Source: Saccharomycopsis phalli
Taxonomy: Eukaryota; Ascomycota; Saccharomycetes; Ascoideales; Saccharomycopsidaceae
DNA length: 64,000 nucleotides
Reading direction: 5' to 3'
NCBI GenBank assembly: GCA_020342235.1
Contig: CP073213.1
Coordinates: 536,501-600,500 of the forward strand
The notes under the pieces were generated by a model. The model was not told the origin of the DNA and searched no databases. It worked only from the letters and a program-made list of their open reading frames with translations. The stretch's first letter is position 1. The number at the start of each line of letters is the position of its first letter. Shown here in pieces: positions 17,687 through 60,213 of this stretch. The translations under genes were made by a program, and so were the position numbers.

Positions 17687-20600
17687 CTAAAACTCCAACT
17701 CATCGGCAGTGACTCGCCCAAACAATTCCTGAATCAAGTCAATAATCACATCCGTCTCCTGCGTAATCTGGCACGAAATAAGATAGTACGAGTACATCAA
17801 CGCAAAATCATCGTCCTGCACCGTATTATCACCATTCTTCTGGTCCCTTCGCAAGTCAGCCAACTTGGCCAAGATCCGGTCCTTGGAATGCTCCGTCGAG
17901 ATTCCCTTCAAGGGCAACGGGATTCCAAGTCGCATGGCCGAGGCCACCATGTACAAATTCTGGAGAATCCGGCTCTCCAACTCCTCTCGTTCGCTGCGAA
18001 TATAGTCCAACACAAGGTGTTTTCCCGGCGTGAGCCGTGGGTTTTCTGCAATAATCATGTTGATGTTGCCAAACGCATTCAAAATCACCTCGGAACTAGC
18101 CAAGATCGACTTGTAGATTGCAGTGGGGAACGCACCCTTGAGTCGGAATTCCATTGGGGCCTGGTTGCAGAATGTCTCCAACTCGGAGAACATCTCATAC
18201 ACCTGGAAGCCTTTATCCTGGATGCCGACAAGATACTTGTCCAGCAGGCCGGGAACCGGCTGGTACTTTAGCGGGTCGCTATTCCAAATGATGCCGAGCT
18301 GGAGCCAAAGCAACGAGAGGCCCTTTTTCAAACGGGCTCGGGCACTGTGGGGGAGCACAAACGTGGTGATGAAGATCGCCCAGACCACGCCAATGGACAC
18401 ACTGATGAACCGGTGGAACGCAATCTCGTAAATGACCGGGCTGTTTCCACCCTCTCTCTCATCCTCATCCTCGTGCTGGGTCATGCTGTAGCTATATAAT
18501 GCGGTCAAGTTGTAGGTGAGCAAGATGAAGCGGCCATATGCGTTGAACTTGGGCCATTTTAAGATGATGTAAAACGACGGTATCAGAATAAGAAACCCCA
18601 CGATTGCCAGTCCCCAAGCCTCGCCATCAAACAATTCCCAGGTCAATACTGCAACCACAGCCCCAATAAACGTGCCAAGAATGCGCCACTTGACTGTCAT
18701 TTGCGTCCCGCCAACAGATTTGTTCATCATGATGGAGTACACCACAAGAGACCATTCCAACCTCCAGCTGGCGAAAAACTCGCGTGTGCGCGGAATAAAC
18801 GCAAGAGACGAAAGCACAAGGGTCCCCACTCCGACCCGGAGACCTAATTGGAAGTGCGAACCCCGAAAGTTGCTGAGAAACCGCCACACGCGATAACGGA
18901 GCGGCCGCCTGGACGGCGCGGCTTCGGGCGGGCGGGCGCACGTGACTCGCCGGGTCCAGAAGCGGAGCCAGGCGTAGCTGCGGCGGGGCGGCGGGCGGGC
19001 TAGGCAGTCCAAGAGGCGGAACATCTTGTTCAACTCGTTGGAGTACTCAATCAACGAGTAGGAGAAGTTGAAGCAGGATGCGGCCACCTCCTCCTCATCC
19101 TCACTTGTGTCGTCGCGTTTGATCACCTGGAACAACTTCTCGCTATACACCTTGTGCATTGCCTCCAGTTGCTTGGCCAAAAAGAGCTCTTGGGCAAGTC
19201 TATGGCTCCTAGAAAGCTGGGCAGCATTGACTGGCTGGTGCGGCGCAAACTGGTCAAACGGGATGTGGTCGAGGATCTCTCTGATGGTGAATGAGAGCGA
19301 CTTGAGCGATGGGCCGAGATAGAAGATGAACAAGTTGAATAGCTGCGGGGCATCGACAATGTCGTCGGGTCCTGGCACGGACTCTTCGGAGAACAGTGTG
19401 GCGACGCGACGCGGTGGTTTCCCGAAGATGTTGTCGGAGTTTTCGCCGCCTTGGGCCAATTTTGTGCCGTTTTGGACCACTTTTGCATGCCGCAGCACAC
19501 TCTCCTGAAGAAGCTGAATCTGGATGTCAGAGCTAAGCCTGAGCCCAGCAAGCGACCGTGTGAGACTGTGTGTCAACGTACACATCTCCTGGAGCAACGA
19601 GTACTCATGTTCACGACCCTTGACCAACAACTCATAACGGGCCTCTTCCAAAGACACGTCCACAACCTTCAACATGGCCTTTAACTGGCTTTGGATCTGG
19701 TTAATGGCCGCAACATGCAGCTCCTCGCCCGAGAGAAACCGGTCCGAGAGCAACGAGATGCTGTCGCTCATCAAATAACAGCAGTTGTTGAGACTCTGCT
19801 TCAATTTTGCTACAGCACTTTGGGGCCACAACGCGTAGCAGATGCACATTGACACCAATGCGCCAAACCCCACGATTCGGAACACGCTATGGAGCCGCAG
19901 CAACTTGATTTCTCCATGATCATGACTTCCTTCCTTGACAATGGTGGAAATCATCGATGTCGATGCCAACGAACACGCAACGTTGAATGACGGCTTGTTG
20001 ACACGCTGTTTCACCACAGAAACCACACTGAGTGCCACTGAGATCACCACAATATTCACAATGTACCCAACCTGGTTCTCGTCATACATCCACTGGGATA
20101 TCAACGAGCACAAGATTGATACCGAGAAACTGAAGCTCAACAGGAGGCAGATGTACACAATCGACTGGTGCATCAGACCAATTGTCCGCGTCGGATGGAA
20201 ATACACTGCCACTGTCGCCACCAAATGCTTACTATCGCTGGTGCCGAGCAAATTGGCAATAGGGGTGAAATACACCGCCAACGACGCGATAAAGTACGCA
20301 ATCGCGCATTTCAACACGTCCCGCGACAAGTACGGTGCAAAATACCCAGCAGCAGCGGAGAAAAAACCGGTTTCTTGCTCCTCAGGCCGCAATTCGATAC
20401 TTCCAGCCGTGCTACTGGGCTGTACTAGACTAAAATACCGTGACGACGCTTCGCCCGTCTCTGGAATAATCACAGAGCTGTCGTGGATTATTCGGCTGTA
20501 TATCTCCTCCAACTGATATTTATCCTGGACATTGCTAGCAAGTTCCAAAATCTGTGACTCTCGTCGCCTTAGACTCATACCCTGTTGGTTGTATAAACCA

Positions 20601-20725
20601 CGTGAGCTGTTGAATGAGAGTAGACGTGGAGTGGCACGTGATGCAAATGATATCACCTGACATGGCTTTTTATCATTTGGCATAAAATCAATATTGTCAC
20701 GTGACCTGTTGTCATCACCTGACAT
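17687..20725 (-). CDS. BRE4: Bre4-like membrane transporter (ER transporter-like N terminus, DUF2421 C terminus)
   Basis: A large integral membrane protein of up to 1012 residues resembling yeast Bre4 (brefeldin A sensitivity) and the FUSC/aromatic acid exporter fold. Six hydrophobic helices lie at about residues 133-300 and a second set at about 640-800, including VGVGTLVLSSLAFIP and WRILGTFIGAVVAVLTW. The middle is soluble and the C terminus is long and helical. The first ATG (20725) is only 32 bp from the divergent DUO1 start, and the first 49 codons cover three CACGTG sites. A start at Met50 (20578, MSLRRRESQ) giving 963 residues is therefore quite possible. Substrate unknown. Confidence 0.8.
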   Translation of the reverse strand: MSGDDNRSRDNIDFMPNDKKPCQVISFASRATPRLLSFNSSRGLYNQQGMSLRRRESQILELASNVQDKYQLEEIYSRIIHDSSVIIPETGEASSRYFSLVQPSSTAGSIELRPEEQETGFFSAAAGYFAPYLSRDVLKCAIAYFIASLAVYFTPIANLLGTSDSKHLVATVAVYFHPTRTIGLMHQSIVYICLLLSFSFSVSILCSLISQWMYDENQVGYIVNIVVISVALSVVSVVKQRVNKPSFNVACSLASTSMISTIVKEGSHDHGEIKLLRLHSVFRIVGFGALVSMCICYALWPQSAVAKLKQSLNNCCYLMSDSISLLSDRFLSGEELHVAAINQIQSQLKAMLKVVDVSLEEARYELLVKGREHEYSLLQEMCTLTHSLTRSLAGLRLSSDIQIQLLQESVLRHAKVVQNGTKLAQGGENSDNIFGKPPRRVATLFSEESVPGPDDIVDAPQLFNLFIFYLGPSLKSLSFTIREILDHIPFDQFAPHQPVNAAQLSRSHRLAQELFLAKQLEAMHKVYSEKLFQVIKRDDTSEDEEEVAASCFNFSYSLIEYSNELNKMFRLLDCLARPPPRRSYAWLRFWTRRVTCARPPEAAPSRRPLRYRVWRFLSNFRGSHFQLGLRVGVGTLVLSSLAFIPRTREFFASWRLEWSLVVYSIMMNKSVGGTQMTVKWRILGTFIGAVVAVLTWELFDGEAWGLAIVGFLILIPSFYIILKWPKFNAYGRFILLTYNLTALYSYSMTQHEDEDEREGGNSPVIYEIAFHRFISVSIGVVWAIFITTFVLPHSARARLKKGLSLLWLQLGIIWNSDPLKYQPVPGLLDKYLVGIQDKGFQVYEMFSELETFCNQAPMEFRLKGAFPTAIYKSILASSEVILNAFGNINMIIAENPRLTPGKHLVLDYIRSEREELESRILQNLYMVASAMRLGIPLPLKGISTEHSKDRILAKLADLRRDQKNGDNTVQDDDFALMYSYYLISCQITQETDVIIDLIQELFGRVTADELEF

Positions 20726-21183: not shown

Positions 21184-21968
21184 TGGGATAGAAATAGCAA
21201 GGTGGGCCGAAGAGCAAAACAAGCGTTTTGGAATGTTGTCAAAATTTAGTTTGGCATGATAGTCTATGAATATCTTAATCATGTCAATGGTCTATGATTA
21301 TCTTAATCATGTTAATAGTCTATGATTATCTTAATCATGTCAATGGTCTATGATTATCTTTCTCATGTTCAGCTATTGAGACAGATATATGACGTGCTGA
21401 TACTAGACACACAATTCTATTCTCTGGATACGTCTGGTTCAAGTGATTTAAATACCAAAATGACCCAGCCAAAGGAATTGCAATGGGATATGATGACTTA
21501 AATTGAGGGTATTCGGGGAGAGCAAGAGAATGTTCTAGTTGAATTGGACAGCTATGAAGGAACTGTACAAGGTTGGAATGGAATATTGTAACGAAATGAT
21601 TAATGAATTGTGCATTTAAAATGTATTTTAACTAGTGGATATTGTACAACCAAGTCTCGTCAACTCAGATAGGTTACAACTCAGAGTCAAGGCTAGAGTC
21701 AAGGACAGAGTTAAAATAGTGAAACGGTACAATACATATTCAATCCAATTAACATTGTCGTAGATTATAAAAATTGCCACACATTGTGAGGTTTTCTGTC
21801 CACTCAATTAGCGGCGCCGTCCTTTGATTTTTAGACGGTGAAATATCAATCTCACCTCCGGGAAGCCTAATATAGTTATAGAAGTAAATAAACATATTAT
21901 TATAGTGTACTAATGGGGGAAACCCACCGATTGTTTCGTAATGAAATTACTCAATTGTCTCGAGTGCT
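21184..21968. other. intergenic downstream of DUO1
   Basis: Contains a 29-bp minisatellite at 21259-21370 and then unique AT-rich sequence leading into the pheromone-gene promoter. No gene seen. Confidence 0.5.
21259..21370 (+). repeat. 29-bp minisatellite, GTCTATGATTATCTTAATCA
   Basis: Four imperfect units about 75 bp downstream of the DUO1 stop. Confidence 0.92.
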
Positions 21969-21989
21969 CATTGTAATGCACTAATTAGG
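21969..21989 (+). promoter_or_regulatory. putative a2-Mcm1 operator, copy 1
   Basis: CATTGT (HMG-box type site) is followed after a short spacer by CTAATTAGG, a near match to the Mcm1 P-box CCTAATTAGG. It is preceded by CTCGAGT, as in copy 3. It is the first of three such elements 69-73 bp apart upstream of the pheromone gene. Confidence 0.65.
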
Positions 21990-22037
21990 CAACGACAAAT
22001 CTTGATGTCAATTTACCCAATTAAAATCACCATCCTC

Positions 22038-22059
22038 CATTGAAGTATACTAATTAGAC
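22038..22059 (+). promoter_or_regulatory. putative a2-Mcm1 operator, copy 2
   Basis: The weakest of the three copies: CATTGA, then CTAATTAG followed by AC in place of GC. The spacing between the two half-elements is kept. Confidence 0.5.
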
Positions 22060-22110
22060 AACTATAGAATCAGGCAATCCATAAACTTATTCAATTATAT
22101 TTCGAGTCAC

Positions 22111-22131
22111 CATTGTAATGTACCAATTAGG
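22111..22131 (+). promoter_or_regulatory. putative a2-Mcm1 operator, copy 3
   Basis: CATTGTAATG, then CCAATTAGG, nearly identical to copy 1 over more than 35 bp of context. It lies 27 bp upstream of the TATA box. Confidence 0.65.
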
Positions 22132-22157
22132 CAGGCAGCTAAATGGTTCAAATCAAC

Positions 22158-22165
22158 TATAAAAA
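22158..22165 (+). promoter_or_regulatory. TATA box of the a-factor gene
   Basis: TATAAAAA, 42 bp before the ATG at 22200. Confidence 0.7.
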
Positions 22166-22199: not shown

Positions 22200-22334
22200 A
22201 TGCAAACTCCACAAGTCAACAAGTCCTCCTCTGACAAGAAAGCTGCTTCAAAAGACGAGCAAAGGGATAATCTCTACATGACTGACAGCATCAGTCCTGG
22301 GTCCAAAGCAATGGACGCATGTGTTATTGCGTAA
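22200..22334 (+). CDS. MFA1: a-factor mating pheromone precursor (farnesylated peptide)
   Basis: A 44-residue gene starting MQTPQVNKSSSDKKAASKDE and ending SKAMDACVIA. CVIA is a CAAX box identical to that of Saccharomyces MFA1 and MFA2, so the Cys is predicted to be farnesylated, trimmed by Rce1/Ste24 and methylated by Ste14. The Lys/Ser-rich leader followed by an acidic/basic stretch and DN matches the DN/Y cleavage context of Saccharomyces a-factor. Cleavage after Asn would give a 17-residue mature peptide, LYMTDSISPGSKAMDAC. Export would be by a Ste6 ABC transporter. A TATA box and three a2-Mcm1-like operators lie upstream, which is strong contextual support. The mature length and exact processing site are inferred. 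Confidence 0.88.
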   Translation: MQTPQVNKSSSDKKAASKDEQRDNLYMTDSISPGSKAMDACVIA

Positions 22335-25190
<2,856 letters not shown>

Positions 25191-25705: not shown

Positions 25706-26740
25706 TCAACTACAATTATAACGGCGGTCGGGAAAACAGTACTCCACCTCGTAACCTGGATTGACATTAGGCGAACACTCAATACCTCCCGGTATAGATA
25801 TTCTCCCCGACTGAAAAGAACTGCCGTAAATTTTCGCCGAGAAAATTGATGCCGAGTCTTCGACCGTGTAAAATGTCTTTACTTCATTTATCTTGCAGCG
25901 ATACTTGCCGTTTTCTTCCCTAATAAGCTTTCCAGTAAAAAGTGCATTTGGCATTTTACCAATTTTATCTTGAATCTCATTGTAGGAATACAATTTTCCT
26001 TTCTTAAGAAGGCCATGGAGCTTGCGACTTTCTCGGAGTTGGCCGTCGCTAATAAAAAAAGTATAAACTGCCTTCAAATAGTCCATGGCGACACTTCGCC
26101 GAATGCCATCCTCGGCGCCCTCTCTAATCACATTCTCCATCTGATCAGATTGCTGTATATTGAGAGCTCCACTATTCTGGTATCTAATATAGTCCTGGTA
26201 TTCGCTTTTTTGAGTCCAACTCAGTTCTGGGATATAATAGCATTTCGTACTGAGGGACGAAAAGTCCTTTGCATGCTTCATGATTGCCTTCTCTGGACCA
26301 TGTGAATCGGCCCCTTTCCACCATTTATCCATGAGAATTCGATTCCAAGAGAGAGAGTCTTTGAAAAATAACGACCGGACTTTTTGCTCTGATGCAAAAG
26401 AGGCATGAGGCAACACTGACATCTGGTTGTTTGCCTCGGTCACATACTTGTTTCGCTCCAAACTTTTGATGAAAAAGTCCTCATGGTTGCTCAGATAAGT
26501 ATACGAGAGAATCACATTTTTAACCTCCTCGTTGGTACATTCTGTAGGACAGTAAGACATTCTAGTCAGAGGAGGGGCTTTTACTCCCGTGCACCAAGAC
26601 CCTAGGAGCAATTCATCAATGGACTTTTCATCTCGGGTGACGAGATGTTGTGCCTCGTTGGAAAAATTGATTGGGTTTGCATTACCAATCTCCAAAAATA
26701 GCAAGGCCAAAAGGATGTTAAAGATGGCTAATGTATTCAT
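25706..26740 (-). CDS. predicted secreted Cys-containing protein, unknown family
   Basis: A 344-residue protein with a clear signal peptide (MNTLAIFNILLALLFLEIGNA, likely cut before NPINF) and no later membrane span, so it should be secreted or luminal. At least nine Cys in the mature part, spread as WCTG, YCPTEC, KCYY, YRCK, IECS, EYCF and NCS at the very end, suggest disulfide bonds. One dibasic RR site lies near residue 216. I do not recognise the family. The middle is helical and charged and the last 80 residues look beta-rich. Codon use and base composition are more AT-rich than PRP43, as in fast-evolving accessory genes. It sits alone between PRP43 and a 1.7-kb gap. Confidence 0.65.
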   Translation of the reverse strand: MNTLAIFNILLALLFLEIGNANPINFSNEAQHLVTRDEKSIDELLLGSWCTGVKAPPLTRMSYCPTECTNEEVKNVILSYTYLSNHEDFFIKSLERNKYVTEANNQMSVLPHASFASEQKVRSLFFKDSLSWNRILMDKWWKGADSHGPEKAIMKHAKDFSSLSTKCYYIPELSWTQKSEYQDYIRYQNSGALNIQQSDQMENVIREGAEDGIRRSVAMDYLKAVYTFFISDGQLRESRKLHGLLKKGKLYSYNEIQDKIGKMPNALFTGKLIREENGKYRCKINEVKTFYTVEDSASIFSAKIYGSSFQSGRISIPGGIECSPNVNPGYEVEYCFPDRRYNCS

Positions 26741-59145: not shown

Positions 59146-60213
59146 ATGATTTTTCTACTTTGCTGGACATTATTGGTGGACCCTTCCAGGTGCTTCTGGT
59201 TCAACAATCCTCCGCCTTTCAAAGTTGATGGCGTCCCTGGGATTAATATAAAAGCAAACTACTTGGAGAGAAGTAATCAACTAACAAGTGAGCTAGTAGG
59301 CCAGTTTTCTCCTACATGTGTTACTACTGTGGTGAATCCATACTTGGGGAAATGTTTTGACATGGGAGAAGATGAAAAAACCATCGTTGCTGCAAAGTTG
59401 GCTCTTTGCCAATTAAAATCCAATGGAATAGAAACACCAAAAACATGCATTGCTTGTATCACCCACAGTAGATGTGGTCAATGCGTAAAATCAATCTTCA
59501 ATGTTCCTCAGTTATGGACCACATATGATGCTAGCTACAAGTATTATGGTGCCCAGTGCATCCAAGAGTTGATAAAAGACGAACAAAAAAAAGCCATAGA
59601 ATTACATGTAAAGATTTCGAAATATTACCAGGACCTACAAGTGATGAACCTCGACATTATCGAAAAGCTAGAGGCATCCATGCTTACTAAAATTGAAAAT
59701 GTTGTACAGGACAAAATAGCTCACCAATTGAACAAAATCGCCGAGGAACACGCGACTGAAGTTCATAAAATAAGCAGAATGTATTATAATGACTTGGATA
59801 AGTTCAATTCGGCGCAGAATCAGAGTTTAAATTACTTTGAAGCACATTTGGATAATGTGGCGATAAAACACCAGACACAAATGCACTACTTGTTTGAAAT
59901 AAGTAAAATGAACGTCAATCTGACACTCAACGAGTTGAACAAGAATTTAAACCAAACGAAACAGGCTTTGCAGACTATTTCTGGGAATCTATCTGCAAGC
60001 TTACATGCTAGTGTTGAAGAGATTGCACAGTTGCAGCTTAAAATCAAATTAGTCAACCAGGCTTTGGATTGGACAAGATGGAAGTATGCAGTTTATATAA
60101 TTATAGTGTCGGTGGTATTTTCCTTAAGCAGGCAGTATTGGGTATTCAGGTTTGTGGTTGTCAATACCTTGGGTTTTGTTGGTGGTAGAAAATTGTACGA
60201 CTATGTCGTATGA
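59146..60213 (+). CDS. KAR5: nuclear fusion protein Kar5
   Basis: A 355-residue ER/nuclear envelope protein needed for fusion of nuclear membranes during karyogamy after mating (family Kar5/Brambleberry/GEX1). It has a signal peptide (MIFLLCWTLLVDPSRC) and a Cys-rich luminal domain with SPTCVTTVVNPYLGKCFDMG, AAKLALCQLKSNGIETPKTC and a CIACITHSRCGQC cluster. PQLWTTYDASYKYYG follows, as in other Kar5 proteins, then about 150 residues of coiled coil. Two hydrophobic segments at the end (about 302-318 and 325-345) anchor it. Kar5 evolves fast, and the call rests on the Cys pattern and layout. Confidence 0.85.
   Translation: MIFLLCWTLLVDPSRCFWFNNPPPFKVDGVPGINIKANYLERSNQLTSELVGQFSPTCVTTVVNPYLGKCFDMGEDEKTIVAAKLALCQLKSNGIETPKTCIACITHSRCGQCVKSIFNVPQLWTTYDASYKYYGAQCIQELIKDEQKKAIELHVKISKYYQDLQVMNLDIIEKLEASMLTKIENVVQDKIAHQLNKIAEEHATEVHKISRMYYNDLDKFNSAQNQSLNYFEAHLDNVAIKHQTQMHYLFEISKMNVNLTLNELNKNLNQTKQALQTISGNLSASLHASVEEIAQLQLKIKLVNQALDWTRWKYAVYIIIVSVVFSLSRQYWVFRFVVVNTLGFVGGRKLYDYVV

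What the first reader, a model, noticed from the sequence alone, without database searches (positions are those of the whole stretch)
22200..22334. Overlooked 44-codon gene for the a-factor lipopeptide pheromone
Below the usual ORF size limit lies a small gene ending CVIA, the same CAAX box as Saccharomyces MFA1/2. It has a Lys/Ser-rich leader and a DN processing context. The predicted mature peptide, LYMTDSISPGSKAMDAC, is longer (17 residues) than the 12-residue Saccharomyces pheromone and unlike it in sequence. A TATA box and a-specific operators support it as a real gene.
Basis: partly seen in the sequence, partly recalled or inferred. Interest (0 to 1): 0.92.

Follow-up and report, generated by a model that had tools for sequence, protein, structure and literature searches.

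The report
Six-copy yeast a-factor pheromone gene
A tiny overlooked yeast gene very probably makes the fatty mating signal called a-factor, and the same genome carries five more copies of it scattered over its chromosomes, most of them next to a common repeat.

Summary
In detail: window 22200-22334 is a 44-codon ORF ending CVIA, with a Lys/Ser-rich leader, a DN site, a TATA box and repeated upstream sites. The whole genome (14.15 Mb, 8 contigs) settles most of it. Six copies lie on four contigs, and all six keep the CaaX box and DN site. The most diverged copy differs from the three others with the same mature peptide by 5-6 synonymous and no amino-acid changes in that part. Sites of one kind (CATTGT beside an Mcm1-like box) stand before all six, before STE2, and before the only STE14/ICMT gene found, whose enzyme would methylate a-factor. 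The STE3 locus has none; nor does the upstream gap of a STE6 candidate, which counts against a full classical regulon. A MATa1-like homeodomain is present; MATa2 and MATalpha1 were not found. The yeast groups with Saccharomycopsis (CUG-Ser2), not the Candida CUG clade. Transcription, processing, peptide length and activity are not shown.

The parts
22200..22334 (+). a-factor precursor ORF, 44 codons plus stop
   Evidence: five further copies in the genome; codon changes
22200..22271 (+). leader, 24 codons, Lys/Ser-rich, ending RDN
   Evidence: sequence; EQ(R/K)DN kept in 6 of 6 copies; role by analogy (recalled)
22272..22322 (+). predicted mature part LYMTDSISPGSKAMDAC, 17 codons
   Evidence: sequence; cleavage after Asn inferred, not shown
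22320..22331 (+). CaaX box CVIA
   Evidence: kept in 6 of 6 copies
22158..22164 (+). TATA box TATAAAA at -42
   Evidence: TATAAAA found within 150 bp upstream in 6 of 6 copies
21969..21992 (+). operator 1, CATTGT plus Mcm1-like box, exact match to the 21-base pattern
22038..22061 (+). operator 2, CATTGA..., 3 mismatches to the 21-base pattern
22111..22134 (+). operator 3, exact match to the 21-base pattern
21791..21913 (+). piece of the dispersed repeat, upstream, same orientation as the downstream copy
22391..22554 (.). short tandem repeats (25-30-bp units) between gene and dispersed repeat
   Evidence: families D2, D4
22613..22862 (+). dispersed repeat downstream (two aligned pieces, 22613-22687 and 22742-22862)

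Best explanation
The ORF is one of six a-factor (MFA) genes of a Saccharomycopsis-like, CUG-Ser2-clade yeast. In a cells MATa2 (HMG protein) with Mcm1 would activate it through the upstream sites. By established a-factor biology the precursor would be farnesylated at Cys41, lose VIA, be methylated by Ste14, be cut after Asn24 and leave through a Ste6-type ABC exporter as farnesylated, methylated LYMTDSISPGSKAMDAC, sensed by Ste3 on alpha cells. Shown here: the ORF, its five relatives, their codon pattern, the upstream sites and their presence before STE14 and STE2, and the presence of STE2, STE3, one ICMT and a MATa1-like homeodomain. Inferred: expression, binding by a2 and Mcm1, every processing step, the cleavage point, export and receptor activation.
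For: Six copies without internal stops, all with EQ(R/K)DN, LYMTD and ISPGSKAMDACVIA. L006 against the three other SIS copies: 5-6 synonymous, 0 nonsynonymous changes in the mature plus CaaX part; against the two HIS copies 5-6 and 2. A pattern made from MFA sites alone (up to 2 mismatches) hits 16 places, 14 at MFA copies and one 85 bp before the ATG of the single ICMT gene; reversed pattern 0. A matrix from MFA sites alone gives its best score around STE2 in the STE2 promoter, and nothing of 5 or more at STE3. In five copies the two shared operators are more conserved than the spacers, 95.8 against 84.8% pairwise.
Against: No expression or peptide data. No homologue in the protein collection, PDB or Pfam above cut-off. 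The STE2 site scores 8.3, only a little above the window background maximum of 7.5. The STE6 candidate has no site in its 296-bp upstream gap. MATa2 was not found. The mature peptide does not resemble the Saccharomyces one (recalled) outside the CaaX box.
Confidence: 0.92

Rival explanations
1. A small prenylated peptide of the a-cell programme that is not the mating pheromone itself (helper, decoy or interspecies signal), with the real a-factor gene elsewhere.
For: Length and sequence differ from the Saccharomyces pheromone (recalled); function is untested; the genome was not scanned for other, unrelated small CaaX ORFs.
Against: CVIA end and DN context, multiple copies, upstream sites shared with STE14 and STE2 are what an a-factor gene should show.
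Confidence: 0.05
2. A chance or decayed ORF carried along in a repeat.
For: Loose CaaX-ended small ORFs are common (8 in the window, simulated mean 4.31), and five copies are tied to a dispersed repeat.
Against: No internal stop in 6 of 6 copies; amino-acid changes avoided in the mature part while synonymous ones accumulate, also in L006, which has no such repeat match.
Confidence: 0.02
3. On the spread of the copies: the cassette moved as passenger of a mobile element (retroelement-like) and not by recombination between dispersed repeats. This is independent of the pheromone reading.
For: Five copies share promoter, gene and a downstream repeat, and their flanks then differ. One repeat copy, L085, read by eye, is flanked by a 14-base direct repeat and ends in a TATTATTATT tail.
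Against: The two repeat pieces of the window locus are only distantly alike, whereas a fresh insertion with terminal repeats would have near-identical ends. A clear upstream piece at the expected place is seen in 3 of 5 loci. Only one repeat copy was fetched for itself.
Confidence: 0.25

Closest known systems
Saccharomycopsis fibuligera MFA1 and MFA2 (PMC5106798; passages read)
   Same: Small CaaX-ended pheromone genes of a yeast of the same order, found by the same motif logic; two mature forms differing by one residue.
   Different: There two genes in tandem on one chromosome; here six copies on four contigs, five of them with a dispersed repeat. The S. fibuligera sequences were not seen (supplement not readable here).
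Saccharomyces cerevisiae MFA1/MFA2 (recalled; no call)
   Same: CVIA box, Lys/Ser-rich leader, cleavage context ending DN.
   Different: 12-residue mature peptide of unrelated sequence, two genes; regulated by alpha2-Mcm1 repression, not a2 activation.
Schizosaccharomyces octosporus M-factor genes (PMC6342294; passages read)
   Same: Six redundant genes for a farnesylated pheromone in one genome.
   Different: All six give one mature peptide there; here two forms. No repeat cassette is mentioned in the passages read.
a2-Mcm1 control of a-specific genes as in Candida albicans (PMC2253631 and PMC5748462; passages read)
   Same: Activation by MATa2 with Mcm1 fits sites that join CATTGT to an Mcm1-like box; MFA and STE2 carry them.
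   Different: STE14 carries a site and the STE6 candidate does not. RAM2 as an a-specific gene in C. albicans is recalled as a parallel, not looked up.

Membership tests
fungal a-factor (MFA) precursor genes | short ORF with C-terminal CaaX box | tested here: met
   44 codons, CVIA; CVIA in 6 of 6 copies
fungal a-factor (MFA) precursor genes | leader with processing site before the mature part | tested here: inconclusive
   EQ(R/K)DN kept in 6 of 6 copies; cleavage itself cannot be seen in sequence
fungal a-factor (MFA) precursor genes | selection on the mature peptide | tested here: met
   0 nonsynonymous and 5-6 synonymous changes between L006 and three SIS copies; 2 and 5-6 against two HIS copies
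fungal a-factor (MFA) precursor genes | receptor Ste3 and methyltransferase Ste14 encoded in the genome | tested here: met
   one PF02076 match; one PF04140 match, PDB match to an isoprenylcysteine methyltransferase at 2e-53
fungal a-factor (MFA) precursor genes | Ste6-type exporter | tested here: inconclusive
   Six ORFs with two ABC_membrane matches each. The shortest, 1166 aa, matches the solved a-factor exporter at 2.7e-88 but ABCB1 better, 1.8e-112; the other five were not compared
fungal a-factor (MFA) precursor genes | farnesyltransferase, Ste24, Rce1, Axl1 | not tested
fungal a-factor (MFA) precursor genes | sequence relation to a known a-factor | tested here: inconclusive
   no candidate in the protein collection, nothing in Pfam or PDB; so small ORFs are often not annotated there
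fungal a-factor (MFA) precursor genes | secreted farnesylated methylated peptide acting on alpha cells | not testable with these tools
   needs chemistry and mating assays
a2-Mcm1 a-specific regulon | same operator before the a-specific gene STE2 | tested here: met
   best matrix score in 6.7 kb around STE2, 96-119 bp before the ATG; score 8.3 against a window background maximum of 7.5, so modest
a2-Mcm1 a-specific regulon | operator before STE6 | tested here: not met
   none within the 296-bp gap upstream of the STE6 candidate; a weak match (9.0) overlaps the start codon; identity as STE6 unsure
a2-Mcm1 a-specific regulon | operator absent from the alpha-specific gene STE3 | tested here: met
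   no matrix hit of 5 or more in the 3.8-kb STE3 locus
a2-Mcm1 a-specific regulon | MATa2 HMG gene present | tested here: inconclusive
   six HMG matches in five ORFs, none looks like MATa2; an intron could hide it; MATa1-like homeodomain found, 581 bases nearby show no HMG box

The most novel reading that the evidence does not exclude
The a-factor gene has become a dispersing cassette: promoter with a2-Mcm1 sites, gene and a common repeat spread together, giving six copies and two pheromone isoforms, while STE14, the only CaaX methyltransferase gene found, has been drawn into the a-specific regulon, so that pheromone dose and its methylation rise together in a cells.
Probability: 0.35. Interest if true: 0.7.

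Novelty: new member of a known kind. Interest (0 to 1): 0.52.

Why it matters
It gives a candidate mating pheromone to a Saccharomycopsis-like yeast, a group with predatory members and a changed genetic code, and makes its mating testable with a synthetic peptide. Six copies in two isoforms, five of them with a dispersed repeat, are a natural case of pheromone gene amplification. An a-specific operator before the sole STE14 found would show how a modifying enzyme needed above all for a-factor can become cell-type specific.

Tried and rejected
The Pfam match NADH_dhqG_C (E 0.009, 17.1 bits, cut-off 25) and the one PDB match (E 1.6) were set aside as chance.

HMG match L025 was first suspected to be MATa2; it reads as an NHP6-like protein and L026 as RFG1-like (both names recalled).

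The operator-like site at C3:1644715 was set aside: the only ORF starting within 400 bp downstream is 65 aa without a CaaX end, and a similar site about 1 kb away and a further look-alike in the C1a flank (by eye) suggest another repeat. It remains the one of 16 hits without an explanation at a mating gene.

In one search the pattern was loosened after seeing the STE2 and STE14 sites, so its hits there are built in. It gave 35 hits with up to 1 mismatch: 15 exact (13 MFA, STE2, STE14) and 20 with one mismatch (2 MFA, 18 others). The reversed control gave 13, so the 18 are treated as background.

MATa2 was looked for beside MATa1 in 581 bases and not seen. The species name is not settled.

Full report
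OBSERVATION. The ORF at 22200-22334 is as described: 44 codons, CVIA end, 24-residue Lys/Ser-rich leader ending RDN. A TATA box lies at -42, and three related upstream sites start at -231, -162 and -89. A small ORF with a loosely defined CaaX end is not rare (8 in the window, simulated mean 4.31); the strict form occurs once (simulated mean 0.25).

SIX COPIES. A search of the window's own genome (14,148,124 bases in 8 contigs) gave six matches without internal stops: C2 (the window), C1 (three), C5 and C7. All six keep EQ(R/K)DN, LYMTD and ISPGSKAMDACVIA. Four encode SIS (window, L002, L004, L006) and two HIS (L003, L005). L006, on C1 near 242 kb, is the outlier: promoter identity 43-52% to the others and one operator. 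Against the three other SIS copies its mature plus CaaX part shows 5-6 synonymous and 0 nonsynonymous differences; against the two HIS copies 5-6 and 2. That is the codon pattern of a selected peptide.

OPERATORS. The sites read CATTGT, a spacer, then (C/T)AATTAGG. I read them as an HMG site beside an Mcm1 site; the division into halves is recalled. That MATa2 activates a-specific genes in many yeasts, with Mcm1 in the C. albicans lineage, is in passages read of PMC5748462 and PMC2253631. A pattern made from MFA sites alone, up to 2 mismatches, hits 16 places in the genome: 14 at MFA copies, one at C1:227601, one at C3:1644715; the reversed pattern hits none. The C1:227601 site starts 85 bp before the ATG of a 240-aa ORF that is an isoprenylcysteine methyltransferase, STE14, the only one found. 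A matrix from 15 MFA sites gives its best score within the 6.7 kb around STE2 at 96-119 bp before the STE2 ATG, and nothing of 5 or more in the STE3 locus. The STE2 score (8.3) is only a little above the window background maximum (7.5), so that site is suggestive by itself. The STE6 candidate has no site in its 296-bp upstream gap, which counts against a full classical regulon; its identity as STE6 is also unsure, since six ORFs carry two ABC_membrane matches each and only this one was compared. In five copies (L006 left out) the two shared operators are better conserved than the spacers, 95.8% against 84.8%.

MATING TYPE. STE2 and STE3 are single matches. No MATalpha1 match was found, but no control genome rang either, so absence is not proven. 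The homeodomain match at C1:1186080 reads KQVRVW, then an intron-like GTAAGC...TACTAAC...CAG, then FTNKRSR and an early stop; this resembles Saccharomyces MATa1 (recalled). MATa2 was not found.

WHICH YEAST. The nearest relatives of a window protein (BRE4-like; only 8000 candidates scored) are unnamed proteins at 70% and 60% (the latter over 40% of the query); the best named one is Saccharomycopsis crataegensis at 50%. In a tree of 16 rows the window protein sits with these three at 100/100, apart from the Candida CUG clade with Babjeviella. Of 11 CTG codons in that gene, three fall in columns mostly Ser among 32 relatives (31, 21, 23 of 32) and one in a column Leu in 31 of 32; the other seven are in variable or gapped columns. 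With 8 contigs the genome does not look like the published S. schoenii assembly (6 nuclear chromosomes, 14.3 Mb; PMC13148404, abstract and passages), but the two were not compared. The pheromone ORF has no CTG codon.

HOW THE COPIES SPREAD. Five copies (not L006) share promoter, gene and a downstream copy of a dispersed repeat in the same orientation; further upstream (-1400 to -600) they are unrelated, 31-44% identity. The region after the window gene has 62 matches in the genome, with 40 of 149 candidates scored. A piece of the same repeat lies upstream at -409 to -287 (window), -381 to -321 (C5) and -391 to -339 (C1a); C7 has a weak piece at -251 to -195 and a segment like the window's upstream one some 1.1-1.2 kb upstream; C1b has none in the 1.5 kb held. 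Recombination through the repeat and movement with it are both open.

KNOWN AND NEW. a-factor genes are a known kind. S. fibuligera has MFA1 and MFA2 in tandem with one residue between the mature forms (PMC5106798, passages). S. octosporus has six M-factor genes with one mature form (PMC6342294, passages). Ten paper searches, of which I saw the listings, showed no report of this gene family or of an a-specific STE14. That library leaves out most subscription papers; a recalled survey of pheromone genes across hundreds of yeast genomes could not be consulted and may already list this gene.

VERDICT. An a-factor gene, one of six: 0.92. A new member of a known kind, with an unusual copy number and arrangement and a suggestive link to STE14.

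Noticed in passing
window 22613-22862; 62 matches in G000 with 40 of 149 candidates scored: A dispersed repeat of about 210-260 bp, 75-85% alike between copies; one copy (L085) ends in a TATTATTATT tail and is flanked by a 14-base direct repeat read by eye. Type not determined.
   Followed up: partly
window 17687-20725 (-), codons 184, 195, 706, 714: CTG codons fall in columns conserved as Ser (three) but also in one conserved as Leu (31 of 32 relatives); this could be mixed or recent reassignment of CTG in this lineage.
   Followed up: partly
G000 C1: STE14 at about 227.7-228.4 kb and L006 MFA copy at about 241.9-242.1 kb: The operator-bearing STE14 and the most diverged MFA copy lie about 14 kb apart.
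   Followed up: no
window 59146-60213 (+): ORF of 355 aa matches Pfam Tht1-like nuclear fusion protein (PF04163, E 2.4e-10), another mating-related gene, of karyogamy.
   Followed up: no
window 25706-26740 (-): 344-aa ORF with a hydrophobic start like a signal peptide and no Pfam match at E 0.001.
   Followed up: no
window 194 and 1276: The same 36-base weak operator-like hit occurs twice, so the first 1.5 kb of the window holds repeated DNA.
   Followed up: no
L005, 3' side of the C7 MFA copy: The short units found after the window gene are expanded into a longer array there.
   Followed up: no
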